Shown in pieces: positions 21,154 through 38,460 of a stretch of DNA of 64,000 bases. Every line of letters starts with the position of its first letter. Position 1 is the first letter of the stretch. Source of the DNA: Halapricum salinum (GTDB taxonomy: Archaea; Halobacteriota; Halobacteria; Halobacteriales; Haloarculaceae); the NCBI RefSeq assembly GCF_004799665.1, contig NZ_CP031310.1:3216887-3280886 (forward strand). Reading direction: 5' to 3'. Made by a program: the position numbers and the translations under genes. The notes under the pieces were generated by a model. That model was not told where the DNA came from. It ran no database searches and saw only the letters and a list, made by a program, of their open reading frames with translations.

Positions 21154-21709
21154 GGGCCGCCACCTCGACAGCACGCCGTCGACGGTCAGGTCTATCGATG
21201 CCGGCTTTCCCCAGTGTACCGGAATGTGTCATGGTATCTACCGCCCCCATCCTATGAGGCGGTCTGAAGTTCACGCCCACCGATGCTGTAGCAAGTGGAT
21301 GAATAGCCAACGCTCTTATTAGTGTGTGTCAATCTCTCACTACCAGGGATAAGCACACAATACGCACGCACCCACCGCGAGTAAGAGTCGATTTAAGATC
21401 AGCTATCGCTACATCATGTTCCTACCCCTCAGTATCGTATCTTCCCCACGCACTGCCCGGTCGAGTGTGCTTTCAAGGGGGCTGCCTCGAGGATTATCCG
21501 TCGCTGGATCATTCATCGAACATGATTTGTCGGATCTACGAGAGAGTGGTCTGCGACCGATCGCCTCGAAGGTCTGCTGGTATAGCTGGAATAACCGAGA
21601 GGTAGGCGGCCAACGAGCTGGGTATGCTGATCGTAACAAAGTATGATCGGAACGCTAGTCTCAACCAGGTAACCCAGTACGGTTCGATCGAGTGGGTGCG
21701 GTATTACGA
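21154..21709 (+). other. Divergent intergenic region between two DUF7344 genes
   Basis: About 555 bases of mixed, fairly low-GC sequence. Short open frames on both strands lack acidic bias or domains. It must hold the promoters of both flanking regulators, but I see no convincing TATA box at the expected distance from either ATG. Confidence 0.5.
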
Positions 21710-22252
21710 ATGAGTGACTCAGATCAGGAACTTTCACGCAACGAAATCTTCGACCTCCTGAGCAACAGCCGACGTCGATACGTGCTATCGTACCTCACGA
21801 ACAATCCCGACGAGGTGACATTGCAGGACCTCTCTCGACAGATTGCGGCCTCGGAGAACGACTGTGACGTCGAAGACGTTACCCAGAAACAGCAAAAGCG
21901 GATATACGTCTCCCTCTATCAGACTCATATCCCACGCCTGAGTGAGGCAGGGGTACTCTCGCACGACGATTCGACTGGGCATCTCACGCTTCAGCGACGG
22001 GCAAACGAAATCGTGCCCTACCTCGAACGTGACAACACGACGCGGCGACCGTGGCACTGGTACTATCTCGCCGTCGTCGGGGCCAGTACCGTCGCATTCG
22101 TCGTGACCGTCTTGGACGCCGGCCCATTCGCCACCGTCAGCGACACGCTGGTCGTGATCGGAATCATTCTCGCATTTGCTTTGCTTACCATCGCCAAGAT
22201 ATACAGTCAGCGGTCAGTCGTTCGAAAACCACCTGGCCCACGCCGCCAGTAA
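21710..22252 (+). CDS. DUF7344-type winged-helix protein with membrane anchor
   Basis: A 180-residue homologue of the preceding regulator in divergent orientation. The DNA-binding part reads RNEIFDLLSNSRRRYVLSYL, then LQDLSRQIAASENDCDVEDV and QQKRIYVSLYQTHIPRLSEAG. Two C-terminal hydrophobic helices follow (WYYLAVVGASTVAFVVTVL and LVVIGIILAFALLTIAKIY). The start is the ATG of MSDSDQELS. Its 3' end overlaps the convergent STT3-like gene by 46 bases. Its position at the 3' end of the fibre operon suggests it may regulate that operon, though this is inference from position only. Confidence 0.8.
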   Translation: MSDSDQELSRNEIFDLLSNSRRRYVLSYLTNNPDEVTLQDLSRQIAASENDCDVEDVTQKQQKRIYVSLYQTHIPRLSEAGVLSHDDSTGHLTLQRRANEIVPYLERDNTTRRPWHWYYLAVVGASTVAFVVTVLDAGPFATVSDTLVVIGIILAFALLTIAKIYSQRSVVRKPPGPRRQ

Positions 22253-24354: not shown

Positions 24355-25226
24355 AGACTGGCCTGTAGCTCACTCGTCAGCTCGACTTCGAAGACACGAG
24401 CACCACAGACGTCACAACTGACTGCAGCGACGTCTACCGTTCGACAACACGATTCGACAGCTTCCTGCTCGACTGTCACTGACTGCCCACAGGCTGGACA
24501 CTGTTCGACGAACATGCGAAGCGCGTTCAGAATGCGACTCCGGTTCAGCACGTGCATCGACGACCACGATTCGTGGAAACCAGACAGCGTCCGATCAGCA
24601 GCGATATCCGCGACGATAGCCGCGGTCGACTCCCACTGGCCAGCCTGGTGTCCATCGATTCTGAGTACCGCAGCCTCGCCGTAGGTGGACAGTGATAGTC
24701 GATCCGGGTCCTCGACGTCGAGCAGGCTCGCGATTGTCGTCTCGTCGACCTGCCGTTCGTCCATCGTTTCGATTCGTGCGTGCCACTCCCGACCGAACGA
24801 AGGTTCGAGACAGAGGTCGTCCACGCGGGGACACGCAGAGAGGACGCCAAGTCGCTGGAGGGAATCTTCGACGTCCAGGAGTTCGATCTCGTCGGCATCC
24901 GAGGGAGTCGACGGCGTCTTCTCGAACCACGCGAGGACTGGCTCTGGGAGGTATCGCTTCGTCAGCGTCGGCGTGTACGGAATCAGGTAGCCGCGTAGAT
25001 AGATCGCCATCGAACCGACGAGGACGACGACGAACCCGAGACCGACCGCCGACGCTAGCGTACTCCCGCCGAACAAGAGTCCGAGCGCTATCGCCACGGC
25101 GAGTGAAACGGTGAGAACTCCGTTCACGATCGTACAGGGCACACAGCGATTGTCACCAACGTATTCGGGTTGGCGAAATCGGTCGACGATCGAACCGCCG
25201 ACGTTCAGCAGCGACGACGAACCCAT
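24351..25226 (-). CDS. Membrane protein with CxxC pair and C-terminal zinc ribbon
   Basis: A 291-residue unknown. Near the N-terminus is NRCVPCTIVNG (Cys28/Cys31). Two hydrophobic helices follow (VLTVSLAVAIALGLLFGG and ASAVGLGFVVVLVGSMAIYL), then a long acidic soluble region. The C-terminus has a zinc-ribbon-like set: CPACGQ, CCRTV and CDVCGA. The CxxC beside a membrane helix recalls thiol-redox proteins, but no thioredoxin fold is evident. The ATG at 25226 lies one base after the peptidase stop, and its stop overlaps the STT3-like start. It is therefore fixed in a peptidase/unknown/STT3 operon and probably acts on the same secreted clients (inference). Confidence 0.7.
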   Translation of the reverse strand: MGSSSLLNVGGSIVDRFRQPEYVGDNRCVPCTIVNGVLTVSLAVAIALGLLFGGSTLASAVGLGFVVVLVGSMAIYLRGYLIPYTPTLTKRYLPEPVLAWFEKTPSTPSDADEIELLDVEDSLQRLGVLSACPRVDDLCLEPSFGREWHARIETMDERQVDETTIASLLDVEDPDRLSLSTYGEAAVLRIDGHQAGQWESTAAIVADIAADRTLSGFHESWSSMHVLNRSRILNALRMFVEQCPACGQSVTVEQEAVESCCRTVDVAAVSCDVCGARVFEVELTSELQASL

Positions 25227-25227
25227 T

Positions 25228-26025
25228 TCACAGTTCCCCCCGTTCGACGTCGTCTTCGGACTCTCTGTCTTCCATCTCGTCGAATGCGATCCACTCTTGA
25301 AAGTCCGCGCCCGACGCTGCAGCGTTGGAATCATCTTCGATTGGCCTGTCGGCAGTCTCCGACCAGTTCTCCTCGAAGACGGAGCTCACCGCTACAGACG
25401 AGAGTTCGAAATCGACCACAGTGGCTTCGTCGTCGCTGGAGATTTCAGGAGCCGTCTCGTCATTCGGAGTCGATCGTTCGCCATGGTCTTCGGCATCTTC
25501 GTCGGGTCGCGATCCGAAGTACGCCACAGCGAGTTCCCACGATTCGCTCACGATCAATAGTGAGAGCGGCGTCAACACGAAGAAGATGATCCCCAGGTCA
25601 GTCTGCAAGAACGTGATCAGGACCCCGATTAGCGGAACCGAAAACAGCACTTCACCGACGTAGGCACGGGGTGGGACCAGATATGGATCTGGCTCCTCGT
25701 TGGCGATACCTTGCGTCTGAAAGAGTGTCTGATTGTCTTCTTCGACGATGTCGACGACCTTGTGCGTCGTCGTCCCTGTGCTGTCTGGAGTGTGATACGT
25801 TATCGTGTCGTTGATCTGGACGTGGTCAGGCGAATTCTGGTGGACGAAAACGACGTCACCGGAGTGGAATTCCGGCATCATACTGTTCGAGAGGACCACG
25901 TAGCCGCCGTAGAACGGGACGAACTGACCGATCACGTACAGCAGCAGTGGAATTACGACGATGAGGACAAGACAGATGGCGATTATCTGCACGACCCGCC
26001 GGCCCGACGGTCGCTCGATCGTCAT
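25228..26025 (-). CDS. SipW-like signal peptidase I
   Basis: A 265-residue membrane serine protease of the archaeal/Sec11/SipW type. Helix 1 is residues 11-33. The nucleophile Ser48 lies in VLSNSMMPEFHSGDVVFV, and the general base His88 in TTTHKVVDIVEED. The next box reads TQGIANEEPDPYLVP. Family members usually have GDAN, so the first acidic residue is Ile107 here, while Asp113 is kept. A second helix pair (LIGVLITFL, GIIFFVLTPLSLLIV) and an unusual acidic tail of about 100 residues follow. It is embedded among TasA-like genes, as sipW is beside tasA in Bacillus, which points to those proteins as substrates. Confidence 0.88.
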   Translation of the reverse strand: MTIERPSGRRVVQIIAICLVLIVVIPLLLYVIGQFVPFYGGYVVLSNSMMPEFHSGDVVFVHQNSPDHVQINDTITYHTPDSTGTTTHKVVDIVEEDNQTLFQTQGIANEEPDPYLVPPRAYVGEVLFSVPLIGVLITFLQTDLGIIFFVLTPLSLLIVSESWELAVAYFGSRPDEDAEDHGERSTPNDETAPEISSDDEATVVDFELSSVAVSSVFEENWSETADRPIEDDSNAAASGADFQEWIAFDEMEDRESEDDVERGEL

Positions 26026-26089: not shown

Positions 26090-26404
26090 TCATGGTCGAT
26101 GGTATCGTGGTTCTGCAGCGGCCGGAGTCTCGACGACTCCAGACAGGAGTTTCATCGTACAGTCCTGATCGGAATTGCCGACACCACAGGATCCGTCGGA
26201 ATTGCCCCCGGAATCCGTGTTTCCGGCCGAGGCGAGGACGTCGTTGGTGACGGTGTTTCCGGCACCGAACTCCGAGTCAGTCTCCAATGATATGCTCGAA
26301 CGCTCGGCGTCCTGGAAGGCGCCGAAAGTGAAGCCACTGCCGAAGAGGACGACGACTGCGAGCGTCAGCGCGAGGAGTTTCAGCGACTCCGACCGAACCA
26401 TCAC
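26090..26404 (-). CDS. Small secreted protein with SipW-type leader
   Basis: A 104-residue protein with a basic start (MVRSESLK), one hydrophobic stretch (LLALTLAVVVLFGSGFTFGAF) and then FQDAERSSISLETDSEFGAG. This resembles the leader and first mature strand of TasA/CalY-type proteins. The mature part is short, with CGVGNSDQDC forming a possible disulphide. It could be a minor or initiating subunit (inference). Two adjacent ATGs can start it. It overlaps the upstream gene by 4 bases and precedes the signal peptidase by 64 bases. Confidence 0.65.
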   Translation of the reverse strand: MMVRSESLKLLALTLAVVVLFGSGFTFGAFQDAERSSISLETDSEFGAGNTVTNDVLASAGNTDSGGNSDGSCGVGNSDQDCTMKLLSGVVETPAAAEPRYHRP

Positions 26405-27636
26405 TGTTCACCCCCGCACGTGTTCTCACAGACTGCTTCCCAGGTCTCCTCACCGAATTCGAACTTCACGCCACACCCGCTCGGGTCCTCCTCTGATGGA
26501 TTCGGGCATGGATCTCTGGGGCACTGTCCGTACGCTGTCGCGTCCTGGCCACCGTCCCAGAGCCGTTTAGAATCGTAGTACGGATTGGTCGGCGTATCAT
26601 CGCTGGCACTGTTGACGTGGACGCTTCCGGCAGTTTCCTGGCCGGCGTAGTGAAAGTTTTCGAAGAACTTGCCCTGGCTGGAGCCGTAATACAGTACTAT
26701 CCACTCCGGTGGCACGTCGCTACTCCAGTCGAGTTTGAATGGATTCCCGTCGGTGTCGTAGTACGGCGTGAACCTGACGTCTCCAGGCGCAATGGTTCCG
26801 TCTTCGATACAGAACGCGACGAAACTGATCTCCTGAAACTCACACGGCGGACAGTCCTCGGTACAGTCGACGGAGCAGTCGTCTTCCCACCCCGGTGGTC
26901 GCGTTGGATCGGGGTCGTGTCGCCACTGCTCGGCGAACAGATCGACGTCGATCGTCAGTGAATCGCCGGTGATGCACGGATCGACGATCGAGAACTCGAA
27001 TCCGAGACAGCAGGTGTCTCCTGGCTGGAGTGGGGCAGGTTCCTCGGTGGTCGGATCCCGGTCGAGAAGCACCCCCTCCCGAAGCGTCGTCAGGACGTCA
27101 CAGAGGCGACCGGACGCGATCACCCGGCCGGAATCGACGACGCCATCACACTGCTCGTCGTACCAGACCGTCAGTTCGATGCCGCGCTCGAGGCCACACC
27201 CGTCTTCGGGACAGCTCGTGCGCAACCACAGCCAGGCCGGATTGTCAGAGAGTGCACAGCGGAGCGTCGCCTGCTGTGTCCCCCCGTTCGAGAGATCATC
27301 GAGGGAGAGTGATGCAGAATCGGCGTTCGGATCACAGGTCTCGCCTGGCTGTTCCAAACAGGTCGTCAGATCGAGCTCACCCGCCTGGACGACGTTCGGT
27401 TCGAGTGAGCCCCACGATTCCAGATCCCAGAACCCGCCGGACGGAGACCCGGAGCTTGAACTCGGGAGCGGCCCGGTCGTGGTCGACGTTTCGTCACCGT
27501 CGAACGCGACAGCGAGTGCCCCACCTCCAATCGCGCCTAGCCCCCCGATTGTTCCGAGCCCGGAGAGGATCGTTCGGCGAGAGACACGCTCTCGACGCCC
27601 ACCTTCTGTATCCCCGTCGCCGTTATCTGCTGGCAC
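26401..27636 (-). CDS. Cys-rich TasA/CalY-like secreted protein with Tat-type leader
   Basis: A 411-residue exported protein. The leader RRERVSRRTILSGLGTIGGL has a twin-arginine and glycine-rich core. The mature start EPNVVQAGELDLTTCLEQPG has the (N)xxxAGxLDL motif of TasA/camelysin subunits. A strand IELTVWYDEQCDG aligns with LQVVIWYDDGDN of the other paralogues. At least 18 Cys occur, in clusters such as CCLGFEF and DCTEDCPPCEF, suggesting disulphide stabilisation. A C-terminal extension (about residues 275-411) is extra to the scaffold and not recognised. It is the first gene of the operon running to the STT3-like gene. Confidence 0.72.
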   Translation of the reverse strand: MPADNGDGDTEGGRRERVSRRTILSGLGTIGGLGAIGGGALAVAFDGDETSTTTGPLPSSSSGSPSGGFWDLESWGSLEPNVVQAGELDLTTCLEQPGETCDPNADSASLSLDDLSNGGTQQATLRCALSDNPAWLWLRTSCPEDGCGLERGIELTVWYDEQCDGVVDSGRVIASGRLCDVLTTLREGVLLDRDPTTEEPAPLQPGDTCCLGFEFSIVDPCITGDSLTIDVDLFAEQWRHDPDPTRPPGWEDDCSVDCTEDCPPCEFQEISFVAFCIEDGTIAPGDVRFTPYYDTDGNPFKLDWSSDVPPEWIVLYYGSSQGKFFENFHYAGQETAGSVHVNSASDDTPTNPYYDSKRLWDGGQDATAYGQCPRDPCPNPSEEDPSGCGVKFEFGEETWEAVCENTCGGEQ

Positions 27637-27759: not shown

Positions 27760-28506
27760 TCAGTTCGAACATGATTCAGCCCGAAATCCGATCTGGAAGT
27801 CGACGCTGTCTGTCTGTGCGAGTACCGGATCGGTCGTTCCAGGATCGAACGACCACTCGATGCCGATGCAGAGTTGTTCATCCTGGCCGACACAGGAGTC
27901 ACCGTCTACGCCGGGTGTCGCGTCGAGCGGCGTCCAGGTCGAGAGCACGTCGGCGACATCGGCGAGCGATCCCGCTGCCACCAGTGTCTCACCGGGATCG
28001 AAATCCCCGTCACAGCGACCAGCAAACTCCGTATCACCGATCATGATGCCAACGTCGTACCAGACGCGTAGCTGGATGAGGTTCTGTAGCTCTCCCTGGT
28101 CGACACTCGTATCTCCAGCCATCTGCTCGGGTTCGGTGATACCGTTCTCGTCGTACGAACTGACTGGGGCGACCAGCTGCATCGAGAGCTGAGCGGCGTC
28201 GAGAGTACTCTGCTCGCCGAGGGCGAGTCCGAAGTGCAGTCGGCCCGAATCCCCTGGCAGCACGTTCCGAAGGTCGACGAGCGGCCCGTTCACGTCGACG
28301 GGCGAGGCCTGGTCCTCGAGTTTCGTGTCGTTGTACCACTCCGCCCAGTTCACGAGGAGTTCGACATCCGATTGCTGGACGAGAAACTGCTGATTGTGGT
28401 CGACTTCCCCCGAGTCGATCGTGAGATACGCACCAGTCGTCGCCACGACAGCACCGAAGCTCCCCGTCGCGAGAAACCGTCGTCGTGAGAGGTCGTTCAG
28501 ATTCAT
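27760..28506 (-). CDS. TasA/CalY-like secreted protein with Tat-type leader
   Basis: A 248-residue exported protein. Its leader is LSRRRFLATGSFGAVVATTG. The mature part shares landmarks with the larger paralogues: NGITEPEQ, LIQLRVWYDVG, CIGIEWSFDPG and the terminal QTDSVDFQIGFRAESCSN. It lacks the WDEEKFGN start motif and has fewer Cys than the preceding gene. A single beta-sandwich domain of about 200 residues is likely. It is transcribed in the same direction as its neighbours but separated by gaps of 123 and 312 bases, so it may have its own promoter. Confidence 0.7.
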   Translation of the reverse strand: MNLNDLSRRRFLATGSFGAVVATTGAYLTIDSGEVDHNQQFLVQQSDVELLVNWAEWYNDTKLEDQASPVDVNGPLVDLRNVLPGDSGRLHFGLALGEQSTLDAAQLSMQLVAPVSSYDENGITEPEQMAGDTSVDQGELQNLIQLRVWYDVGIMIGDTEFAGRCDGDFDPGETLVAAGSLADVADVLSTWTPLDATPGVDGDSCVGQDEQLCIGIEWSFDPGTTDPVLAQTDSVDFQIGFRAESCSN

Positions 28507-28818: not shown

Positions 28819-30747
28819 TCACTCTGGTGTCGGAGTATCACCACCCGGTGACTGGGCGTTGTTCTCGGCGTCTGCTTCGCCGAGCGTGCCGGCCATCGGT
28901 GCACCGTCGTTGCCGACGTTGTGACGGCACTGGATGGCGTCGAAGCCGAACTGGAACGCCAGCCGGTCGGTCTGGATCACGTTGTCGTTGACGCCGGGAA
29001 TGTCCGTGGGCACCCAGCACAGAACTCCAATATACTCGGTGTCGGAGTTCTGATAACAGTAGGTTCCCTGGAAGTCCGTCGCGACGCTCCCAGCGAGCGA
29101 GTCCTGGGCGTTGAACAGGACGTCCGTGCCGTCCATCTCCGCGACAGTGCCAGCGAAGACCGCCGCGTCGGTATCGACGATGTCGCTGGGCTGTTGGGCC
29201 ATCCCGATCTCCATGACGTAGTCTTCTTTCGTCGCGTCGTCGAGTTCGTCGTCTGGCGAGTCCTCCGTCCCGTCGGGCAGTTCGGTCTCGCCGGTCCAGA
29301 TCTCACCGGGGATGTTGTCCCCGTCGTCGTACCAGATGACGCAGTTCATCACGTCGTCGAGTTCGCCGTCGTCGGTCTCTTCGGCGGGCGGGACGGTCGA
29401 GAAGCTTTCTCCCTCTATCAAGACCCAGGAGTCCAGCGAGTTATCGCTCGCGTCGGCGATGGCGAGCTTCAGCGTGTTCGTCTCACCGGGATTGACCTGT
29501 CCACTAACATCCAGGACGACGGTGAGTCCGTCCATCTGGGTGTCCAGACTGCCGTCGGTGTTGTCGATGTAGAGGTCCGAGTTCTCTCCGTTGTTGATCG
29601 AGTTGATCGTCACTGGCTGCGTCCCGTCAGTCGGATCGTCGACCGTCGCGACGTTCGTCCCGTTGACGAAGAACCCGAACACGTCCTCGAAGTTGGACCC
29701 GACGAACTCGTTGTACTCCTCGGAGCCGAAGACGTAGCTGAAGAACACCTCTTCGGCGTCGTTCGGGACTTCGAACTCGATCTCGAGGATGCACTGGTCG
29801 TACATCCCGAAGCTCGAGAGCGACGCGAGGTCCGGGTCGTCTGCCGGCTCTGTATCGACTGAATTTACGGTCAGGTTTGTATCGTCGTTCGGGCCTTCGA
29901 CGTCGAACGCGTACCCGGAGCTGAGGATGATTCCCTCGTCGATTCCGATCGCGTCTGCGCCGTCGGTGAACGTCCCTGCAGATTGTTCAGCACCCTGATA
30001 GGTGACGTTGGTGACCGTGATATCACCCGCACCAGAGACCAGCGTGTCAGCCAGATCCTGTGGCGTCAGACTCCCGGCGAGCGTGTCGGTGACTGTCGGA
30101 CTGGCGGCCGCAGCACTGCCGGTCGCCGCACCGAGGCCGACGAGCCCCGCAGCACCGAGAGCCGCACCCTTGAACACCTGTCGTGCCGAGAGGGTGCTGT
30201 CGTCCTCCTCGTCCTGCAGGCGCCGCCTGAGCGCGTCACCCAGAAGGCCTGCTGCCCCGAGACCGAGTCCCGCAGCGTACGGATCGCCGTCGGACTGGTC
30301 GGGCGTGTGGCCGTTGACCTTGTCCTCGGGTTCGGTGATCCCGTTGTCTTCGTCGGCGTGTTCCTGATAGTGCCACCCCAGGAACGCGGGGTTGCCGTAG
30401 ACGTGCGCCGACAGGGTCGCTTCCATGACGTCGCCGGGTTTGACGTCCGTCAGGTCGATGATCGGTCCTGGCTGGTCGACCATATCCGGTTCGCCGTCTT
30501 CGTTCGTGTCGCTGATCGCGATCAGCTCGTCGGTGCTGTCGATCCAGTCGTAGTACCGAACTTCCCAGTCGACGCCCAGATCCAGCTCGCCACCCTGCAG
30601 GACGTTCGGATCGGACTCGTTGCCGAACTTCTCTTCGTCCCACAGCAGCGACGTCGTCGTCGCGCCGCCGATGAGACCGGCGCCGCCCATGACTCCCAGA
30701 CCGCCGAGGATCTTGCGCCGTGAGAGTCCGTTGCTGTCGTCAGTCAT
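28819..30747 (-). CDS. TasA-like surface protein with inserted choice-of-anchor-L domain
   Basis: A 642-residue exported protein. The leader LSRRKILGGLGVMGGAGLIG is followed by TTSLLWDEEKFGN and VLQGGELDLGVDW, the scaffold start. The scaffold runs to about residue 154 (NGHTPDQSDG) and resumes near 460 with GELDDVMNCVIWYDDGDN. It ends IPGVNDNVIQTDRLAFQFGF and QCRHNVGNDG. The insert (about 155-457) begins with an Arg-containing hydrophobic stretch (SARQVFKGAALGAAGLVGLG to SAAAAS) that looks like a former signal peptide. It continues as a choice-of-anchor-L domain (FGSEEYNEFVGSNFEDVFGF). The function is probably adhesion or display on a fibre. The start overlaps the vWA paralogue's stop by 8 bases. 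Confidence 0.78.
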   Translation of the reverse strand: MTDDSNGLSRRKILGGLGVMGGAGLIGGATTTSLLWDEEKFGNESDPNVLQGGELDLGVDWEVRYYDWIDSTDELIAISDTNEDGEPDMVDQPGPIIDLTDVKPGDVMEATLSAHVYGNPAFLGWHYQEHADEDNGITEPEDKVNGHTPDQSDGDPYAAGLGLGAAGLLGDALRRRLQDEEDDSTLSARQVFKGAALGAAGLVGLGAATGSAAAASPTVTDTLAGSLTPQDLADTLVSGAGDITVTNVTYQGAEQSAGTFTDGADAIGIDEGIILSSGYAFDVEGPNDDTNLTVNSVDTEPADDPDLASLSSFGMYDQCILEIEFEVPNDAEEVFFSYVFGSEEYNEFVGSNFEDVFGFFVNGTNVATVDDPTDGTQPVTINSINNGENSDLYIDNTDGSLDTQMDGLTVVLDVSGQVNPGETNTLKLAIADASDNSLDSWVLIEGESFSTVPPAEETDDGELDDVMNCVIWYDDGDNIPGEIWTGETELPDGTEDSPDDELDDATKEDYVMEIGMAQQPSDIVDTDAAVFAGTVAEMDGTDVLFNAQDSLAGSVATDFQGTYCYQNSDTEYIGVLCWVPTDIPGVNDNVIQTDRLAFQFGFDAIQCRHNVGNDGAPMAGTLGEADAENNAQSPGGDTPTPE

Positions 30748-32674
30748 CGTTGGCGTAGTGCTGAGCGTTGTTTTCGGCGTCGGCTCCCGGGAGCGTCTGG
30801 ACCGGCATTCCGTCCTCGTTGGTGTTGTGGCGACACTGGACGGCCTCGAAGCTCACCTGGAACTCCAGCCGGTCGGTCTGGACGATGTTGTCGTTGACGC
30901 CCGGGATGTCGTAGGGGAGCCACCACTCCATCGCGACACAGCCGGTGTTCGACGGCGCCTGACAGTACTGGCCGAACTGCTCGGCGGCAGCGATGCCAGT
31001 CGCGTCCGGTCTGAGGAGCACGCAGTCTTCGAGACCGTTCCAGTCGCCCTCTTGCTGTCCGCCGATCAGTTCGTTGATCGGCATCGGGCCAGCGATGATC
31101 TCTTCGCCACCGGCGGAGCTACAGACCACTGTCTGGACCGTCTCGATGGCATCTCCGAGTTCGCTGTAGTTGGCTGCGAACAGCGGGTTGAGACCCTCAG
31201 TCGCCAGGGCGTTGGCGTAGTCGACGTCGTCACCGCTCGGATCGGCGTTGACGATCACTGGCAGAATGTCGACACTGTCCAGTTGTGCGTCGTCGGCGGT
31301 CTGCTGTGCCTCTGCCAGAGTCGTCTCACCGGGTTTGCCGTCAGTGAAGACGACGATGAGCTTGCGGACCTCTCCCGGGAATGCGGCGTTCCCACTGGGA
31401 TCGATTCCCTCTTTGCCGCTGCTCGCGCTGACGAACGCGTCGGGCAGCAACGCGCGGTGAGCCCGCTCGATGCCGGCCGGGACCGCCGTCCCACCGTCCT
31501 CCGTGTACGGGCGCTCGGCCTCGTACTCGTTTCCGCCGGTGTTGTTGACGGGGTCTTCGGTGACGAAGTCGGGACTGAAGTCCGTGTCCGGCCCAAAGAG
31601 GTTCTTGAGGTCCTCGTAGTCGGCCGCAGTGTTGCCATCGTCGTCGCCGGCGTTCGCGGCCGTGAGCGCGCGGTCGAGGTTGGCGTCGAGACCGCCGTCG
31701 TCGAAGCCGACCTGCGTGCCGTCGTCGTCGTCGCCGTCGTCGAGGTTGTCCAGGTGGTGCAGGTTGACCGCCGTGCTCACGCTTCCGACCTCGATGTTTC
31801 CACCGCCACAGCTGGCGATCTCCGAAAGAAGGTCGACGTCCGAGCCGAGCGCCGGGTGATCACCCATGTGGGCCTTGATCGCTTCGAGGCGGGTGTTGTC
31901 CCCGGCCTGGTTCGCGTCACCGGGATTGTCGTCGACGTCGGGCGTGCCGGAGAACGGCTCCCCCATCGACTCGGAGACGTCGGTCACGAACATGACCTCG
32001 ATCTCCCCGCCCTGATGGAGATTGTCGCAGTTGCGGTCGTAGAACAGCTTGGCCTGGATGTGGTCTCCCAGGTCGCCGCCCTCGGTGCCGTCAGACTCGT
32101 CGGGCGTGTGGCCGTTGACTTTGTCTTCGGGTTCGGTCAGCCCGTTGTCTACATCTGCGTGGACTTCCCCACACATCGAGACGAATCCGGGGTTGCCGAA
32201 GAGGTGGTAACTGAACGTCACCTCACCGAAGTCGCCCGGTTTGACGTCTTCGAGTGTGACGACCGGGTCGGGCTGGTCGTTCGGGCTATCTGGCCCGGCT
32301 TCTTCTTTGACGAGGTCCTGTTCTTCGATAATCGTGTCCAGCCAGAGAGCGTTGAAGTCTTCCTGGGGGACGGCGATCATCGGATTGTTCGGGGGGAGGT
32401 AGGCCTCTCCTTCCTGCAGGTCATCGAGACTGTCGATACGCCGGACGTCGTACTCTGTCTCCGCACCGAGCCAGTCGACGTAGTGTTCTTCCCAGTCGAC
32501 CGCGAGGTCGAGTGCACCGGCCTGCAAGACGTTGGGATTCGACGCGTTGCCGAACTTCTCTTCGTCCCACAGCAGCGACGTCGTCGCTGCACCACCGAAC
32601 GCGCCGGCCGCACCGATGGTGCCGAGCCCACCGAGTAGCTTCCTGCGCGAAAGGTTTGATTTGTCGTCGCTCAT
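30740..32674 (-). CDS. TasA-like surface protein with inserted von Willebrand A domain
   Basis: A 644-residue exported protein with the same scaffold ends as its neighbours: LSRRKLLGGLGTIGAAGAFG, SLLWDEEKFGN, VLQAGALDLAVDW at the start and IPGVNDNIVQTDRLEFQVSF near the end. After the strand IQAKLFYDRNCDNLHQGGE the scaffold is interrupted by a vWA domain (about residues 225-518). The metal-ion-dependent adhesion site is intact: DVSES at 232-236 and FTDGKPG at 443-449. This gives a metal-dependent ligand-binding head (inference: adhesion). The insertion lies just after the strand that follows the insertion point in the choice-of-anchor-L paralogue. It lies between the other two paralogues, 20 bases after the plain one. 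Confidence 0.8.
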   Translation of the reverse strand: MSDDKSNLSRRKLLGGLGTIGAAGAFGGAATTSLLWDEEKFGNASNPNVLQAGALDLAVDWEEHYVDWLGAETEYDVRRIDSLDDLQEGEAYLPPNNPMIAVPQEDFNALWLDTIIEEQDLVKEEAGPDSPNDQPDPVVTLEDVKPGDFGEVTFSYHLFGNPGFVSMCGEVHADVDNGLTEPEDKVNGHTPDESDGTEGGDLGDHIQAKLFYDRNCDNLHQGGEIEVMFVTDVSESMGEPFSGTPDVDDNPGDANQAGDNTRLEAIKAHMGDHPALGSDVDLLSEIASCGGGNIEVGSVSTAVNLHHLDNLDDGDDDDGTQVGFDDGGLDANLDRALTAANAGDDDGNTAADYEDLKNLFGPDTDFSPDFVTEDPVNNTGGNEYEAERPYTEDGGTAVPAGIERAHRALLPDAFVSASSGKEGIDPSGNAAFPGEVRKLIVVFTDGKPGETTLAEAQQTADDAQLDSVDILPVIVNADPSGDDVDYANALATEGLNPLFAANYSELGDAIETVQTVVCSSAGGEEIIAGPMPINELIGGQQEGDWNGLEDCVLLRPDATGIAAAEQFGQYCQAPSNTGCVAMEWWLPYDIPGVNDNIVQTDRLEFQVSFEAVQCRHNTNEDGMPVQTLPGADAENNAQHYANDD

Positions 32675-32694
32675 TGTCCTATCCCGTCACCCCG

Positions 32695-33720
32695 TTAGGT
32701 CGGGTCCGGGGTAGTCGTGCCACCCTCGGGCGAGTTCGCGTTGTTCTCGGCGTCGGCGTCCGCGATGGTGTCGTCCATCGGGAGACCGTCGTTGCCGACG
32801 TTGTGGCGGCACTGGATGGCGTCGAAGCCGAACTGGAACTCCAGGCGGTCGGTCTGGACGATGTTGTCGTTGACCCCGGGGATGTCCGTCGGCAGCCACA
32901 CCAGTACCGCGATGTATTCTGTGACCGAGTTCTGGTAACACGCGGTGTCGGGGAACTCTTCGGCGACGGCTCCCGAGTTCGAATCGCGGGCGTCGAAGCG
33001 AACGTTCGCCCCGTCGAGACCGGCCAGGTTGCCGGCGTAGACGACTGGGTCTGCCCCACCGAAGGCATCGGCTGCGCTCTGTATGGAAGCGACGTCCATC
33101 ACGTACTCTTCTTCATCGATAACGAGTTCATCTCCCTCATTACCGTCTCCATCGGTAATATCCGGGAGTACCTCGTCCGGGAGGTTGTCGCCGTCGTCGT
33201 ACCAGATGACGACCTGCAAGTACTCGTCGAGGTCCCCGTCTTCCGTCCCGTCGGACTGGTCTGGGTCGTGGCCGTTGACCTTGTCCTCTGGTTCGGTGAT
33301 TCCGTTGTCGGTGTCGGCGTGCTCCTCGTAGTGCCATCCCAGGAACGCGGGGTTCCCGAAGATGTGCGCACTCTGGGTGACCTCGAGCACGTCGCCGGGC
33401 TTGACGTCCTGGAGATTGATGATGGGCCCTGGCTGGTCGACGAGGTTCGGGCCCTCTTCGACGACGACTGCCGGGTCCTCGACGTCGTTACTGCTGAACG
33501 TCGGGTTGTCGATCCAGTTGTAGTACGTCCCTTCCCAGTCGACTTTGAGATCCAGTTCCCCTGCCTGCAACACGTTCGGGTTGTCCGCGTTACCGAATTT
33601 TTCTTCGTCCCACAGCAGCGAGGTCGTCGCTGCGCCACCGAGCGCCCCGGCGCCGCCGATAACGGCGGCTGTGCCGAGGAGCTTTCGTCGTGAAAGCGGT
33701 AGTTTGCTATCTTCTGACAT
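32695..33720 (-). CDS. TasA-like surface protein, plain scaffold
   Basis: A 341-residue exported protein that shows the scaffold without insert. It has LSRRKLLGTAAVIGGAGALG (twin Arg at 11-12), then SLLWDEEKFGN and VLQAGELDLKVDW (51-63), VKPGDVLEVTQSAHIFGNPAF, NGITEPEDKVNGHDPDQSDG and the strand LQVVIWYDDGDN (168-179). It ends with CYQNSVTEYIAVLVWLP and IPGVNDNIVQTDRLEFQFGF. Its simplicity and first position make it the best candidate for the main filament subunit (inference). The ATG at 33720 starts the normal leader; a Met 27 bases upstream is less likely. Confidence 0.78.
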   Translation of the reverse strand: MSEDSKLPLSRRKLLGTAAVIGGAGALGGAATTSLLWDEEKFGNADNPNVLQAGELDLKVDWEGTYYNWIDNPTFSSNDVEDPAVVVEEGPNLVDQPGPIINLQDVKPGDVLEVTQSAHIFGNPAFLGWHYEEHADTDNGITEPEDKVNGHDPDQSDGTEDGDLDEYLQVVIWYDDGDNLPDEVLPDITDGDGNEGDELVIDEEEYVMDVASIQSAADAFGGADPVVYAGNLAGLDGANVRFDARDSNSGAVAEEFPDTACYQNSVTEYIAVLVWLPTDIPGVNDNIVQTDRLEFQFGFDAIQCRHNVGNDGLPMDDTIADADAENNANSPEGGTTTPDPT

Positions 33721-34065
33721 TGTCTTTCCTCGATTGTTGACGGTCACGGTGGGCCCCCACTATCCCAGGCGCCACCCCGCGACCTGTGAAAACAATGCAC
33801 AATGACTTCCGTAGTTGTAAACTGCCTATCAAATTTAGCCTGGCCGAGTCGAGGCTTACGACGGCCGTTCGACCGGGTTCTGGCGTGGTAAACGAATGTT
33901 ACGGACCTGTCTCGACAACCGATAGCCTCGCAAGTGAACGCGTCTGATACGAGTTCGAAGACCACTGCGTAGGGGCAGTTTCTCGGTCTTCAGTCGCAGG
34001 TAGACGGTTTCTACCGAGAGTAGTCAGTGGCAAACTAAGTGACTCCCACGGCAGTATTACGCTCA
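33721..34065 (+). promoter_or_regulatory. Divergent control region of the surface-protein operon and a DUF7344 gene
   Basis: 345 bases with no gene. For the minus-strand operon there are AT-rich elements (AAATTTGATAGG-like sequence near 33820-33840 and AGTTTACAAC near 33815) that would leave a leader of about 80-100 bases. For the plus-strand regulator, CAAACTAAG (34031-34039) lies at about -30 of the ATG at 34066. The divergent arrangement suits control of the operon by the regulator. Confidence 0.4.
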
Positions 34066-34644
34066 ATGCCACGGATCGGTTCAGCGCGCTGGACCTCGCT
34101 CCCGTCCATCCGGTCTCGCTCAGAGGCCCTCTCCAGAGAGACGGTGTTCGAGATGCTGAAGAACACCCGGCGGCGGTACGTATTTCACATCCTCAGCCAG
34201 CGAGCCGAGCCGATCACACTGGCGGCGCTGAGCGAGGAGGTGGCTGCCCTGGAATACGATACCGAAGTCGAGGACCTGGACGGCGATCAACGCCAGCGAA
34301 TCTACGTCTCACTCCGGCAGACACATCTGCCGCGGCTCGACGAGGCGAACGTCGTCGACTTCGACGCCGAGGCGAATACGGTCGCACTGGCCGAGAACGC
34401 GTCCGACCTGCAGGTATATCTCGAGACAGTCCCGGACGACGATATCCTCTGGGCACAATTCTATCTCGGGCTGGCGGGGGTCGGCGTCGGACTCCTCCTG
34501 TTTCTCTGGCTCGGCGTCCCGCCCCTTTCGACGTACCCCACACTCGTCGGGACCGTCATGCTTGCCGTCCTCGGTGGGTCGGCAGTCGTCCACCATCGCC
34601 ATCTCCAGCGACGGCGGCTCGGAACGGGTGAGTCACCGATATGA
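34066..34644 (+). CDS. DUF7344-type winged-helix protein with membrane anchor
   Basis: A 192-residue homologue of the two regulators near 21 kb. Its core is SRETVFEMLKNTRRRYVFHI, LAALSEEVAALEYDTEVEDL and RQRIYVSLRQTHLPRLDEAN. Two C-terminal helices follow (YLGLAGVGVGLLLFLWLG and LVGTVMLAVLGGSAVV) and a His/Arg-rich end. It is divergent from the surface-protein operon with a shared 345-base control region. A GTG 27 bases upstream is an alternative start. Probably a membrane-bound transcription regulator (inference). Confidence 0.8.
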   Translation: MPRIGSARWTSLPSIRSRSEALSRETVFEMLKNTRRRYVFHILSQRAEPITLAALSEEVAALEYDTEVEDLDGDQRQRIYVSLRQTHLPRLDEANVVDFDAEANTVALAENASDLQVYLETVPDDDILWAQFYLGLAGVGVGLLLFLWLGVPPLSTYPTLVGTVMLAVLGGSAVVHHRHLQRRRLGTGESPI

Positions 34645-34675: not shown

Positions 34676-35758
34676 GTGATCGTGGCCCAGAGCGTCCCCG
34701 ATGGCCACGCCGACGACGAGACGGACGTCGAGACGGACAGCGTCGTCTCGCGAGACGACCTATTCGAGATGCTCGGTAACGACCGACGGCGTCGTGCGCT
34801 GGAGATCGTCATGGAGCGCGAGGGCGGTGTATCCGTTACCGAACTCGTCGAAGAAGTCGCCGCGCAGGAATACGACAAACCGGTCGATGAACTCAGTCGA
34901 TCCGAACGGAAAGCTGTCTATACGGCAGTCGTCCAGCGACACTTGCCGAAACTCGAGGATCGCGGTCTCATCGCACGCGATCACGAGGCCGGTGAAGTGG
35001 TTCCATCGGAGACGCTCGTGGACCTGAACATCTACTTCGAGATTTCCGGCGACGGTCGGTTCCCGTTCAGCGTCTACTACGTCGGACTCTCGGGACTGGG
35101 AATCGTCCTGCTACTGGCTGCTTCGTTCGGCCTCGAGCCGGTCGATGCGTTCTCGCCTGTGACCTGGTTGTCAATCACACTGGGAATACTCGGCGTGACA
35201 GCGCTGGTTCACCTCCACCGGATGCGACGGATGCGTGTCGACCCGACGGGGAGCGAGGATGTCGAGAAGGAAACAGACGATCGAGTCGTGCTGTCGGTGT
35301 TGGCGTCGGGAATCGCAGCGACTGCCGGCGGCCTCGTCGGGGGGGCAGCGATGTGGGTAATCCTCCACCACGTCATGTTCTTCACTCCGGTGATCATGGC
35401 CGTCTACGGGTTCGAGACGAGTGACCCCACGATCCTCGCCCACCTCGGTCACAGTCTCGTCTTCGCGGCGGTGTTCGCTGCACTACTCACCCGAGAGCAG
35501 TTTCGGCTCGTCTCACAGACGGTCGGGGAGACAGTCGCGCTGGGGATGCTGTACGGTGTCGGCCTCTGGTTCGTGGCCGAAGGGGTCGTCGTTCCGGCCA
35601 TCTCGGGCGTGGTGCTGGCGACGCAGTTCGAGGTCTTCGGAGTCGACGTGCTCTATCTGCCACTGGACGGGCTCTCAGCCCACGTGATATTCGGGGCACT
35701 GCTCGGCGGCGTCTACACGTACACGCGCCAGAGGCTCGAAGGATCGATCGAGGGCTAG
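34676..35758 (+). CDS. DUF7344-type winged-helix protein with multi-span membrane domain
   Basis: A 360-residue regulator-like protein 31 bases after the previous one. The winged-helix region is SRDDLFEMLGNDRRRRALEI, VTELVEEVAAQEYD and RKAVYTAVVQRHLPKLEDRG. Instead of the usual two helices it has two and then, after a charged linker, about four more (VLSVLASGIAATAGGLVGGA, LGHSLVFAAVFAALL, LGMLYGVGLWFVAEGVVVP, VIFGALLGGVYTY). The extra membrane domain may be a sensor. The start is a GTG; exact position uncertain. The stop overlaps the convergent protease gene by 4 bases. Confidence 0.75.
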   Translation: MIVAQSVPDGHADDETDVETDSVVSRDDLFEMLGNDRRRRALEIVMEREGGVSVTELVEEVAAQEYDKPVDELSRSERKAVYTAVVQRHLPKLEDRGLIARDHEAGEVVPSETLVDLNIYFEISGDGRFPFSVYYVGLSGLGIVLLLAASFGLEPVDAFSPVTWLSITLGILGVTALVHLHRMRRMRVDPTGSEDVEKETDDRVVLSVLASGIAATAGGLVGGAAMWVILHHVMFFTPVIMAVYGFETSDPTILAHLGHSLVFAAVFAALLTREQFRLVSQTVGETVALGMLYGVGLWFVAEGVVVPAISGVVLATQFEVFGVDVLYLPLDGLSAHVIFGALLGGVYTYTRQRLEGSIEG

Positions 35759-38460
35759 CCCGTGAATTCGACCTGACTTCCGGTATCGACCTGTCCGTCC
35801 GAGCTCTCTGCGACTGCCTGGTAGACGTAGGTCGTACCGTAGCTGTCGTAGAAGTTCTCGCTGAAGGCTCCGGTCGAACGTCGCGTCTGGGTGTCGGTCG
35901 TTTCGAGCGTCGAGGACTTCGCTCCCTTCTCCCAGTACTCGAAATACACAGTCGCGGAACTTGCGCCACCGAGATTCGAGACGGAACCATTCAGAGTAGC
36001 ACGGAGCCAGGTTTGCTCGACAGACCCCGTCTCGACGGTCAGTCCGCCACTACTCTCGCGCTCGGTACTGAACGCGACCGCCGATCCGGTGTCTGAGTCG
36101 CCATCACTTGCGTCGGCAACAGCCCGGAATTCGTAGTCCGTCCCTGTGCTGAGGCCCGACAGAGTCTCACTGAACGAGCCGGTGGAGGACAGCGTCTGGC
36201 TTGTCGTCGTTTCCCAGGTAGCGGTTCCGCGTTGTCGATACTGGAAGTAACATTCAGCCGACGTCGCGCCGCCGAGGTCAGTCAGCGATCCCGCGAGTGT
36301 CGCCGAGGACTCCGAAACGCTCGATATCGAGCCGGTCGAGACGACGACAGACGTGTCCTGTGAATCAGTCGTGAACGAAACAGTCGAACCGGTGTCCGAA
36401 TCGCCGTCGCTAGCGTCGGCAATCGCCCGGAACTCGTAGTCTGTCCCCGAGCTGAGATCCGATAGATCCTCAGTGAACGACCCGGTTGAATCGAGAGTTT
36501 GTCCCGGCGTCGTGGCCCAGCTATCGGCGCCGCTCTGACGGTACTGGAAGTAACATTCGGCAGAACTCGCGCCGCCAAGATCGGTGACCGAACCGGACAG
36601 TGTTGCTGCCGAGCTGGAGACACTCGAGATCGACCCCGTCGAGACGACGACAGTCGTGTCTTCCTGGTCAGTGCTGAACGAGGTAGCAGAACTGGTCGCC
36701 GAGTCACCGTCACTGGCGTCGACAACGGCCCGGAACTCGTAGGAAGTATCTGATTCGAGGGCCGTCACGTCGGCACTGAACGAACCGGTCGAGGTACGAG
36801 GTGTCGAGGTCGTCGTATTCCAGGTTGACCCACCACTCTGTCGATACTGGAAGTAACATTCGGCAGAACTCGCACCGCCGAGGTCGTCGAGCGATCCGTT
36901 CAGCGTCACAGTCGTCGTACCGAGGTTGGTGGTACCTGCAGTGCTGACGGCGAGCGTCGCCGTCGACTCGGTCGTGAACTCGACTGTGCCGCCGTCTTTC
37001 CAGGCACCGTCCGAGGCCTCACCACGCGCTGCGTAGACGTACGTCGTGCCCGAAGCGAGATCGGTCGCCTTCTCGCTGTACGAGCCGGTGCTGTCGAGAG
37101 AGTCCAGACCGACGAAGGTCGACGTCGAGGACTGACTCCCCTTCTCCCAGAGTTTGAAGTAACAGCCGGCACTGTCGGCGCCGTCGAGTGATTCGAGGTA
37201 TCCGTTGAGCGTTGCCTGATCGGTCGTGACGTTCGTCGGTTGGTCGGTCTGCATCGTGAATTCAGAAGTCTGTGTGTCGTCGAGTGCTGCGTCGACATCT
37301 AATAATCCGCTTCCCTGTTCGGTCGAGGAGAGGCCGATGTCTTCGGCCGTCGAGTTGAGTCGGTCGCGCGCTTCTGTCGCCGTGTACCCATTGGCCACCA
37401 AGAGCCCAGCCGCACCCGCGACGTGTGGCGTGGCCATCGACGTGCCGGACTTGTACACCGTTCCGCCTGGGATGGTCGACCGAATGGACGCGCCAGGTGC
37501 GGCGATCTCGACCTCTATCCCGGTCGACGAGAAGCTCGCCAGGTTGTCGTCTGAATCAGTCGCCGATACGGCGATCACTTCAGAATATGCGGCCGGGTAT
37601 TTAACACAATCCTGACACGGGCCGGCGTTCCCGGCTGCGGCGACGAGCAAGACGTCCCGCTGGGTGGCATACTGGACCGCGTCGTAAATGGCACTGGAAC
37701 CGGAACTCGCGCCGAGACTCATACTCGCAACGTCCCAGCCCTGGTCGGCGACGTACGTGATCGCGCTGGCGACGTCGGAGTAGTTGCCGTAGCCACTGCA
37801 GCCGAGCACTTTGACTGCGTGAAGGGTCGCGTTCGTGGCTACACCGACGACACCGGTTTCGTTATCGATGGCATCAGCGATGCCCGCACAGTGTGACCCG
37901 TGGTCGTTGTCGTCGTCCCACGGCTCGATGCACGAATTGCCGTTCGTCGTACTGCAATCGCTGTCGTCAGGGTGGGTTCCGCAGCGGACAAATGCTTTCC
38001 CGGCTCCGAGGTTCCCCTGGAGATCGGGATGGTCACTGTCGATACCCGAGTCGATGATAGCGATGTGAGCACCGTCACCGGTCGCGCCGTCATCGTGGGC
38101 GACATCTGCGTCGACGCGGTCGACGCCCCATGGGAGACTCTCGCCGAGTGCCTCCACGAGACCATCTCGTTCGACATATCTGACGTCCGGTCGATTCTCC
38201 AGCGCCTGGGCGGCTGCCTCCGAAAATCGGCCAGCCACCGCTTTCCCACGCGAACCGAAGTCGAGCTCTCGCTTCACAGCGTCTGCTTTCGAAGTAACTG
38301 CACTCGCTGAGAAGCCCGGTTTCGTCCCGACGATATAGCGGTCGTTGCCGCCTGACCGCGACGACGCACCGGCGCGCCCAGCGACCGAGCCGGCCGCCAG
38401 ACCAACGCCGAGATGCTGAAGGATTCCACGCCGACTTATTCGTTCTGTTCCATCTGACAT
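35755..38460 (-). CDS. Secreted subtilisin-like protease (halolysin type) with five C-terminal repeats
   Basis: A 901-residue exported serine protease. The Tat leader is RISRRGILQHLGVGLAAGSV. A propeptide (about 38-105, DRYIVGTKPGFSASAV) is followed by an S8 domain with Asp137 (IIDSGIDSDHPDL), His187 (DHGSHCAG), oxyanion Asn278 (AAAGNAG) and Ser341 (SGTSMATPHVAGA), all intact. The C-terminal 500 residues are five repeats. Tat export is normal for halolysins, which fold before export. Being in the island beside surface proteins, it may mature or shed them (inference). It stands alone on its strand with a 460-base upstream gap. Confidence 0.92.
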   Translation of the reverse strand: MSDGTERISRRGILQHLGVGLAAGSVAGRAGASSRSGGNDRYIVGTKPGFSASAVTSKADAVKRELDFGSRGKAVAGRFSEAAAQALENRPDVRYVERDGLVEALGESLPWGVDRVDADVAHDDGATGDGAHIAIIDSGIDSDHPDLQGNLGAGKAFVRCGTHPDDSDCSTTNGNSCIEPWDDDNDHGSHCAGIADAIDNETGVVGVATNATLHAVKVLGCSGYGNYSDVASAITYVADQGWDVASMSLGASSGSSAIYDAVQYATQRDVLLVAAAGNAGPCQDCVKYPAAYSEVIAVSATDSDDNLASFSSTGIEVEIAAPGASIRSTIPGGTVYKSGTSMATPHVAGAAGLLVANGYTATEARDRLNSTAEDIGLSSTEQGSGLLDVDAALDDTQTSEFTMQTDQPTNVTTDQATLNGYLESLDGADSAGCYFKLWEKGSQSSTSTFVGLDSLDSTGSYSEKATDLASGTTYVYAARGEASDGAWKDGGTVEFTTESTATLAVSTAGTTNLGTTTVTLNGSLDDLGGASSAECYFQYRQSGGSTWNTTTSTPRTSTGSFSADVTALESDTSYEFRAVVDASDGDSATSSATSFSTDQEDTTVVVSTGSISSVSSSAATLSGSVTDLGGASSAECYFQYRQSGADSWATTPGQTLDSTGSFTEDLSDLSSGTDYEFRAIADASDGDSDTGSTVSFTTDSQDTSVVVSTGSISSVSESSATLAGSLTDLGGATSAECYFQYRQRGTATWETTTSQTLSSTGSFSETLSGLSTGTDYEFRAVADASDGDSDTGSAVAFSTERESSGGLTVETGSVEQTWLRATLNGSVSNLGGASSATVYFEYWEKGAKSSTLETTDTQTRRSTGAFSENFYDSYGTTYVYQAVAESSDGQVDTGSQVEFTG
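35758..37251 (-). repeat. Five tandem repeats of about 95-100 codons in the protease gene
   Basis: Each encoded unit has the pattern xATLNGxLxDLGGASSAECYFQ, STGSFSxxxxxLxSGTxYEF and RAVADASDGDSDTGSxVxFST. Units 2-4 are most alike; units 1 and 5 use FKLWEKG or FEYWEKG in place of FQYRQSG. The fold is probably FN3/Ig-like. Confidence 0.85.

What the first reader, a model, noticed from the sequence alone, without database searches (positions are those of the whole stretch)
28819..33720. Three paralogues on one scaffold carry different inserted domains
The plain copy (32695-33720) shows an unbroken scaffold. The middle copy has a vWA domain inserted (about 31123-32002). The left copy has a choice-of-anchor-L domain (about 29379-30285). 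The inserts fall on opposite sides of the same strand (IWYDDGDN/LFYDRNCDN). This suggests an edge loop that tolerates large heads, so one fibre could display different binding modules.
Basis: seen in the sequence. Interest (0 to 1): 0.8.

Follow-up and report, generated by a model that had tools for sequence, protein, structure and literature searches.

The report
Archaeal fibre proteins with swappable heads
A salt-loving archaeon carries a small gene family built on a TasA-like (biofilm-fibre) protein fold into whose surface loops whole extra domains have been inserted, and relatives show that several loops act as sockets for different modules.

Summary
Three adjacent minus-strand genes (33720-28819) share one scaffold: a plain copy, one with a vWA domain (31100-32014) after the strand LFYDRNCDN, and one with an insert containing a choice-of-anchor-L domain (29386-30282) before the equivalent strand. 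The genes at 27760 and 26401 are further paralogues.

The scaffold model's best PDB matches are all TasA (VIA-align Z 8.8-9.0; next unrelated fold 6.8). A SipW-like signal peptidase gene lies beside the cluster.

In 231 aligned family members, the interval after the strand holds more than 100 residues in 128, mostly vWA. The loop before the strand is rarely used (2 of 231). Two scaffold intervals never hold more than 100. The anchor-L domain sits before the strand in four proteins and after it in a fifth.

Four of eight before-strand inserts also carry an internal Tat-signal-like segment, two with an intact twin arginine.

Best reading: TasA-like (donor-strand) fibre subunits that display interchangeable modules. 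Fold and insertion sites are supported by computation; polymerisation and binding are inferred. New variant of a known kind.

The parts
32695..33720 (-). plain scaffold subunit, 341 aa, Tat-like N-terminus (LSRRKLLG), TasA-like jelly roll without large insert
   Evidence: model pLDDT 65, best PDB matches TasA (8aur, 5of2, 5of1)
30740..32674 (-). scaffold subunit with vWA domain inserted after the IWYDD-type strand, 644 aa
31100..32014 (-). inserted vWA domain (model residues 221-525), DxSxS at residues 232-236, T396 and D445 of the metal site
   Evidence: Z 20.6 to the vWF domain of pilus-tip protein Mfa5, 6tnj; invariant D232 S234 S236, nearly invariant T396 D445
32039..32056 (-). scaffold strand before the vWA (model residues 207-212, within AKLFYD)
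31079..31099 (-). scaffold strand after the vWA (model residues 526-532, within EEIIAGPM)
28819..30747 (-). scaffold subunit with large insert before the strand VIWYDDGDN, 642 aa; overlaps the stop of the vWA copy by 8 bases
29386..30282 (-). whole insert of the left copy (residues 156-454)
29401..30054 (-). choice-of-anchor L domain (residues 232-449)
   Evidence: NF038133 E 1.1e-64, 217.8 bits, cut-off 27
30220..30279 (-). first hydrophobic stretch YAAGLGLGAAGLLGDALRRR (residues 157-176), weak MYXO-CTERM-like match below cut-off
   Evidence: TIGR03901 E 0.009, 16.4 bits against cut-off 20
30085..30210 (-). internal Tat-signal-like stretch (residues 180-221), twin arginine replaced by Ala-Arg
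   Evidence: TIGR02811 E 1.8e-5, below its cut-off, residues 180-221; relatives L132 and L220 keep RR
29314..29367 (-). scaffold strand block GELDDVMNCVIWYDDGDN after the left insert (residues 461-478)
27760..28506 (-). minimal paralogue, 248 aa
   Evidence: scaffold profile E 1.4e-26
26401..27636 (-). fifth paralogue, 411 aa; scaffold match ends at residue 249 and a C-terminal module follows
   Evidence: scaffold profile E 3.7e-24
25228..26025 (-). SipW-like signal peptidase I
   Evidence: TIGR02228 88 bits (cut-off 51.85); NF046067 SipW 69.8 bits (cut-off 190)
34039..34644 (+). DUF7344 gene, divergent from the fibre cluster; homologues in 74 of 80 related loci
34676..35758 (+). second DUF7344 gene

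Best explanation
The cluster encodes subunits of a TasA-like extracellular filament. Each subunit has a signal peptide with a twin-arginine motif and a TasA-type jelly roll, and the signal is probably removed by the neighbouring SipW-like peptidase. Subunits would then join by passing their new N-terminal strand into the next subunit, as TasA does. Loops that stick out of the jelly roll serve as sockets into which whole domains have been inserted. In this genome one subunit is plain, one carries a vWA with an intact metal site after strand C2, one carries an anchor-L module before that strand, and one has a C-terminal module. The plain or minimal copies would make the shaft and the loaded copies would decorate or cap it. 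SHOWN BY COMPUTATION HERE: shared scaffold, TasA-like fold, insert positions, use of the same sockets in relatives, linked SipW-like gene. INFERRED: export route, cleavage, polymerisation, mixing of copies in one fibre, and adhesion by the modules.
For: Fold: Foldseek rank 1 is the TasA fibre 8aur (E 1.4e-3, prob 1.00). VIA-align ranks 1-3 are TasA, Z 9.0, 8.9 and 8.8 over 152-174 residues; the next unrelated fold is 6.8; archaeal bundling pili 7ueg 5.5. A sequence profile alone matches 8aur and 5of1 along the chain at E 0.016-0.02. The vWA sits between retained strands 207-212 and 526-532, and its nearest solved folds include pilus adhesins (Mfa5, SpaC, PitA, PilB). Family survey: 135 of 391 haloarchaeal genomes match the plain copy. 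Of 231 aligned members, 128 have over 100 residues between strand C2 and block E1 and 73 have over 60 after the scaffold; the intervals B-C1 and E1-E2 never exceed 31 and 62. Of 80 loci, 71 have two or more architecture types and 66 have a vWA copy. Sockets are reused: anchor-L before the strand in 4 proteins and after it in L118; a second domain family before the strand in L128, L132, L220 and L225. SipW-like homologue in 71 of 80 loci, against 2 in the whole own genome, the other also close to weak scaffold matches.
Against: Model confidence is only moderate (pLDDT 65 and 70). The curated TasA and camelysin models do not match the window's proteins. No filament, donor-strand exchange or binding has been shown for this family in anything I could read. 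The three window copies are more like each other than like any relative, so they could be functionally redundant. The window's vWA has no close relative in 145 genomes searched, so conservation of its binding site beyond the metal residues is untested.
Confidence: 0.62

Rival explanations
1. Fixed division of labour rather than interchangeable decoration: the plain copy is the shaft, the vWA copy is the tip adhesin, and the left copy, with its two hydrophobic stretches, is the base that holds the fibre to the cell.
For: vWA copies are near-universal in the clusters (66 of 80 loci by the DxSxS rule), as expected of a required part. The nearest vWA folds include pilus-tip proteins. Half of the before-strand inserts carry hydrophobic stretches (4 of 8).
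Against: Some loci have two vWA copies (for example L071 and L090), and the before-strand copies are rare (2 of 231). Nothing here places any copy in a fibre. Four of eight before-strand inserts lack the hydrophobic stretches.
Confidence: 0.3
2. The proteins are individual secreted or surface-bound binding proteins that share a TasA-type carrier domain but do not polymerise.
For: A shared fold shows no function (warning). The copies are large and diverse, and the minimal scaffold also occurs outside haloarchaea as ORFs of about 250 aa (G490 and G528).
Against: Conserved linkage to a SipW-like peptidase in 71 of 80 loci, multi-copy clusters with plain members, and the SipW-type signal model in 56 of 59 relatives scanned match the TasA/CalY arrangement.
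Confidence: 0.22
3. The inserts are old fusions by gene conversion without functional meaning, or an assembly artefact.
For: The insert types do not follow the scaffold tree.
Against: Independent genomes repeat the same architectures. vWA metal-site residues are kept: DxSxS within the first 60 residues in 95 of 104 members of the vWA cluster. GC content and third-position GC of inserts and scaffold are alike. The own genome is one contig, 99.98% complete.
Confidence: 0.03

Closest known systems
TasA / camelysin (CalY) biofilm fibres with SipW
   Same: TasA jelly roll is the best PDB match; SipW-like peptidase gene linked; N-terminal segment of the SipW-dependent type in relatives (TIGR04088, 56 of 59). 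PMC9674648 (passages read) shows TasA joining by an N-terminal donor strand.
   Different: No such inserted domains in TasA or CalY in the passages I read. The window proteins miss the curated TasA and camelysin models. The signal has a twin-arginine motif (LSRRK).
Archaeal bundling pili of Pyrobaculum (7ueg)
   Same: Archaeal relative of TasA fibres (cited in PMC10151520, passages read); listed by VIA-align at Z 5.5.
   Different: Weaker match than TasA, and no inserted modules as far as seen; the original paper is not held.
Haloarchaeal Tat-fimbriae (tafi; TafA, TafC, TafE)
   Same: Haloarchaeal fimbriae exported by Tat, seen only through the citing paper PMC12687288 (passages read). TafC ends in a LamG-like module, as does family member L068. 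DUF7344 genes stand next to TafC in three loci.
   Different: The scaffold profile finds nothing at E 1 or better in three TafC loci. The TafA matches in the three relatives listed one by one cover only model positions 2-28, the signal peptide.
Modular pilins and vWA pilus adhesins (PilB of S. sanguinis, Mfa5, SpaC)
   Same: Idea of a pilin carrying a vWA head for adhesion; PilB abstract start seen in a listing (PMC8179133). Nearest vWA folds.
   Different: Type IV, type V or sortase pili (partly recalled), not TasA-like scaffolds.
Choice-of-anchor L domain proteins (NF038133)
   Same: Domain scores 217.8 bits against a cut-off of 27.
   Different: Here the domain lies inside another fold instead of next to a C-terminal anchor (the usual setting is recalled, not tested).

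Membership tests
TasA / camelysin family | TasA-type jelly-roll fold | tested here: met
   8aur rank 1 in Foldseek; 5of2, 5of1 and 8aur ranks 1-3 in VIA-align, Z 8.8-9.0
TasA / camelysin family | match above cut-off to the curated sequence models (PF12389, NF046066) | tested here: not met
   no match of the window's proteins at E 1 or better. Of 10 relatives, 6 match PF12389 at E 0.01 or better and one passes its cut-off (L134, 23.0 against 22.5). NF046066 matches 4 of 59 relatives at best E 0.021. So 'TasA-like', not filed as TasA/camelysin.
TasA / camelysin family | linked SipW-type signal peptidase | tested here: met
   25228-26025, TIGR02228 above cut-off, NF046067 below cut-off; homologue in 71 of 80 related loci
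TasA / camelysin family | SipW-dependent-type signal peptide (TIGR04088) | tested here: inconclusive
   56 of 59 relatives match at E 10 or better, but the window's three copies do not at E 1 or better
TasA / camelysin family | polymerisation by donor-strand exchange | not testable with these tools
   no multimer prediction or experiment available
Haloarchaeal Tat-fimbriae (tafi) | TafA homology over the mature protein | tested here: not met
   scaffold profile silent in three TafC loci; TafA model over its cut-off in 7 of 97 genomes, not in this cluster
Haloarchaeal Tat-fimbriae (tafi) | twin-arginine signal peptide | tested here: met
   sequence (LSRRK) in all three copies; TIGR01409 17.6 bits against cut-off 16.7 for the plain copy, 15.3 (below) for the middle copy, not listed for the left copy. 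Export route itself not tested.
vWA domain | vWA fold | tested here: met
   Z 20.6 to 6tnj over 188 residues
vWA domain | metal site DxSxS, T, D | tested here: met
   D232, S234, S236 invariant (rows were chosen for DxSxS, so that part is partly by construction); T396 and D445 in at least 90%. Without that choice: DxSxS in 95 of 104.
choice-of-anchor L domain | NF038133 above cut-off | tested here: met
   217.8 bits against 27

The most novel reading that the evidence does not exclude
The before-strand insert arrived as a whole Tat-exported protein, signal peptide included, and the captured signal still works in some relatives. In L132 and L220, where the twin arginine is intact, the subunit would be threaded or held at the membrane by a hairpin in the middle of its beta-sandwich, or be cut there into two halves that stay together. 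This would make it a fibre base anchored through a loop instead of a terminus. In the window's copy the twin arginine has decayed to Ala-Arg.
Probability: 0.13. Interest if true: 0.8.

Novelty: new variant of a known kind. Interest (0 to 1): 0.6.

Why it matters
If the subunits do polymerise, haloarchaea have a TasA-like fibre that can be fitted with different heads at several fixed sockets, comparable to modular type IV pilins but on an unrelated scaffold. It would give a ready explanation of how one simple filament serves adhesion to different targets. It would also offer a natural map of positions in a donor-strand fibre that accept 200-350-residue insertions. The captured internal Tat-like signal is an unusual trace of how a complete secreted protein can be built into a loop.

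Tried and rejected
Tried without result: the search for related loci with the single plain protein found no relative in genome contigs; an alignment query did. MAFFT on the three whole proteins misplaces the inserts, so borders come from phmmer pieces, block matching and the models. The block matcher put block D of the window's vWA copy on the wrong side of its insert (score 0.0); the model decides. The label 'vWA' for L118 is an artefact of a loose motif; L118 carries anchor-L. Hydropathy does not prove a membrane hairpin: internal 17-residue stretches with Kyte-Doolittle mean 1.25 or more occur in 71 of 231 members, and the window's stretches reach 1.51 and 1.25. An attempt to set the inserts apart by base composition showed no difference. 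Tat-fimbriae were considered as the family and rejected on sequence. The VIA list for the vWA copy is filled by vWA chains, so its scaffold was not tested there. Sialoadhesin matches of the scaffold profile (E 0.002) cover 49 positions around KPGD and were taken as chance. I did not model the left copy, having used the two structure jobs on the plain and vWA copies.

Rows dropped: 29 of 260 family ORFs failed the block thresholds; 143 of 336 in the named set; 15 of 275 phmmer hits lay above E 1e-5. For the vWA model 68 of 78 filtered homologues were used, and for the plain model 15 of the 18 short ones plus all 49 of the C-terminal type.
Full report
WHAT IS THERE. The window is haloarchaeal. 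It is a single-contig genome. One genome of its own genus (G257) has a contig of 241,273 bases, the length of a Halapricum hydrolyticum contig, so Halapricum is the likely genus; this is an inference. On the minus strand lie, in order, a plain scaffold gene (33720-32695), a vWA-bearing gene (32674-30740), an anchor-L-bearing gene (30747-28819, overlapping its neighbour by 8 bases), a 248-aa gene (28506-27760), a 411-aa gene (27636-26401), a 104-aa gene, a SipW-like signal peptidase (26025-25228), a zinc-ribbon-like gene and an AglB/STT3-type gene. A scaffold profile matches the first five (E 1e-74 to 4e-24).

INSERT BORDERS. The plain copy matches the left copy in two blocks that leave left residues 156-454 unmatched. 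These begin with two hydrophobic stretches and continue with the choice-of-anchor L domain (residues 232-449). The next scaffold residues are GELDDVMNCVIWYDDGDN. In the middle copy the same strand comes first (GDLGDHIQAKLFYDRNCDN), then the vWA, then GGEEIIAG. The model of the middle copy has scaffold strand 207-212, a vWA fold over 221-525 and scaffold strand 526-532.

THE SCAFFOLD. The plain model (pLDDT 65, pTM 0.65, 65 sequences) has strands 56-68, 85-88, 100-104, 110-122, 125-137, 169-175, 207-212, 266-275 and 292-303. Foldseek's first PDB match is the TasA fibre. VIA-align puts three TasA entries first at Z 8.8-9.0, above the next unrelated fold at 6.8, with archaeal bundling pili at 5.5. 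A profile of the family reaches TasA by sequence at E 0.016-0.02, along the chain but with low alignment confidence. TasA monomers join through an N-terminal strand, and a loop at residues 174-177 lies farthest from the fibre axis and mediates bundling (PMC9674648, passages). In the weak alignment that loop falls after block D, in the interval I call L4.

SOCKETS. Using eight ungapped blocks I measured the spacing in 231 of 260 family ORFs from 80 related loci plus the window. L1, before the KPGD block, exceeds 60 residues in 136. The interval after KPGD never exceeds 31. L2, before the IWYDD strand, exceeds 60 in 2 of 231 (the window's left copy and L075). The interval from the strand to block E1 exceeds 100 in 128. 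E1-E2 exceeds 60 in 2 and never 100. The C-terminal tail exceeds 60 in 73. Where block D is confidently placed (180 of 231), 88 have more than 100 residues before it (L3), 14 after it (L4) and none both. A second, named set, partly of the same genomes, gives the same picture: 193 of 336 aligned; L2 over 60 in 3, C2-E1 over 100 in 120, tail over 60 in 56.

WHAT SITS IN THE SOCKETS. The after-strand inserts form one main BLAST cluster of 102 (108 with six tails). With the window's vWA and one other, 104 sequences were aligned, and 95 have DxSxS in the first 60 residues; several of the rest look like beta-propellers by eye. A second cluster of 20 has another domain. Choice-of-anchor L occurs in 7 of 391 genomes, and in 5 of them inside this scaffold: before the strand in G000 (window), G097, G232 and G172, after it in G233 (L118). 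L132, L128, L220 and L225 carry a different domain before the strand, in L225 followed by further material. So the before-strand loop takes two domain families and the anchor-L family uses two loops.

DESCENT. On a scaffold tree of 237 sequences the window's three copies form one clade (support 1.0) with left and plain as sisters (0.989). The other before-strand proteins lie elsewhere, in at least two further places. In the anchor-L domain tree the three other before-strand domains group together (96-100), with the window's and the after-strand one outside. Loop and domain history therefore do not coincide, which points to repeated insertion or exchange. The window's vWA has no match at E 1e-5 in the other 144 of 145 genomes searched, so whether it is an old, diverged family vWA or a separate insertion is open.

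THE CAPTURED SIGNAL. Before its folded domain, the left insert has YAAGLGLGAAGLLGDALRRR and then STLSARQVFKGAALGAAGLVGLGAATGSAAAA. The second stretch is the part of the whole protein that best matches a Tat-signal model (residues 180-221, E 1.8e-5, below cut-off). Relatives L120, L132 and L220 have a comparable pair; L132 and L220 keep a twin arginine (SRRSAVRKGA, DRRSALRKGA). Cut out alone, the L132 stretch matches the Tat model only weakly (E 0.075) and the L120 stretch not at all. A search with the L132 stretch found, besides two before-strand proteins, two other proteins in which the match covers a twin-arginine stretch near the N-terminus (L222, L223). The remaining four of eight before-strand inserts (L121, L122, L128, L225) lack the pair. 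I read it as the signal peptide of a donor protein, carried in with it. Whether it still acts is unknown. Hydropathy alone does not argue for a membrane hairpin.

CONTEXT. A homologue of the window's SipW-like gene is present in 71 of 80 loci, and DUF7344 homologues in 74 of 80. The own genome has only two SipW-like matches; the second, near 2,656,700, lies within about 2 kb of weak scaffold matches. Of the 80 locus entries with aligned members (window included), 71 have at least two architecture types and 66 a DxSxS-bearing copy. In a phylum sample of 392 genomes, 55 match the scaffold and 18 of these lie outside the class, some with ORFs of about 250 aa.

KNOWN OR NEW. TasA homologues are known in archaea (PMC10151520, passages). 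Haloarchaeal Tat-fimbriae are in print (seen only through PMC12687288), but their TafC loci lack this scaffold. Modular vWA pilins are known for type IV pili (PMC8179133, listing only). My searches for TasA-like proteins with inserted vWA or anchor-L heads in haloarchaea listed no such report, in a library that lacks most subscription papers. I therefore rate it a new variant of a known kind.

Noticed in passing
26401-27636: Fifth paralogue; its scaffold match ends at residue 249 and the rest (ISFVAFCIEDG...) resembles by eye the C-terminal module of L047:7247-8923.
   Followed up: partly
26090-26404: 104-aa gene with a SipW-type-looking start (FGAFQDAERSS), overlapping its neighbour by 4 bases; no homologue at E 1e-5 in 80 related loci.
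   Followed up: partly
24351-25334: Conserved gene with a C-terminal zinc-ribbon-like pattern; homologues in 45 of 80 related loci, function unknown.
   Followed up: partly
22207-24354: AglB/STT3-type oligosaccharyltransferase paralogue, far below the cut-off of the archaeosortase-associated model, beside the fibre genes here and in only 4 of 80 loci.
   Followed up: partly
20563-21174, 21692-22252, 34039-34644, 34676-35758: Four DUF7344 genes flank the cluster; candidates for its regulators.
   Followed up: partly
35755-38460: Subtilase with several C-terminal fibronectin-III-like repeats next to the cluster; a homologue in 1 of 80 loci.
   Followed up: no
L132:4977-6734, L165:10835-12721, L139:9902-11752: Inserts at the vWA socket that look by eye like a beta-propeller (repeated Y.VD..TG motifs); no Pfam match to the insert in the two scanned.
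   Followed up: no
L049:7213-8769 and 19 others (cluster 5): A domain with the motif VKGGP in the after-strand interval, of unknown family.
   Followed up: no
L068:9075-10691: Scaffold with a C-terminal LamG domain that also matches fimbrial TafC (E 1.4e-9, below cut-off), a possible domain-level link to Tat-fimbriae.
   Followed up: partly
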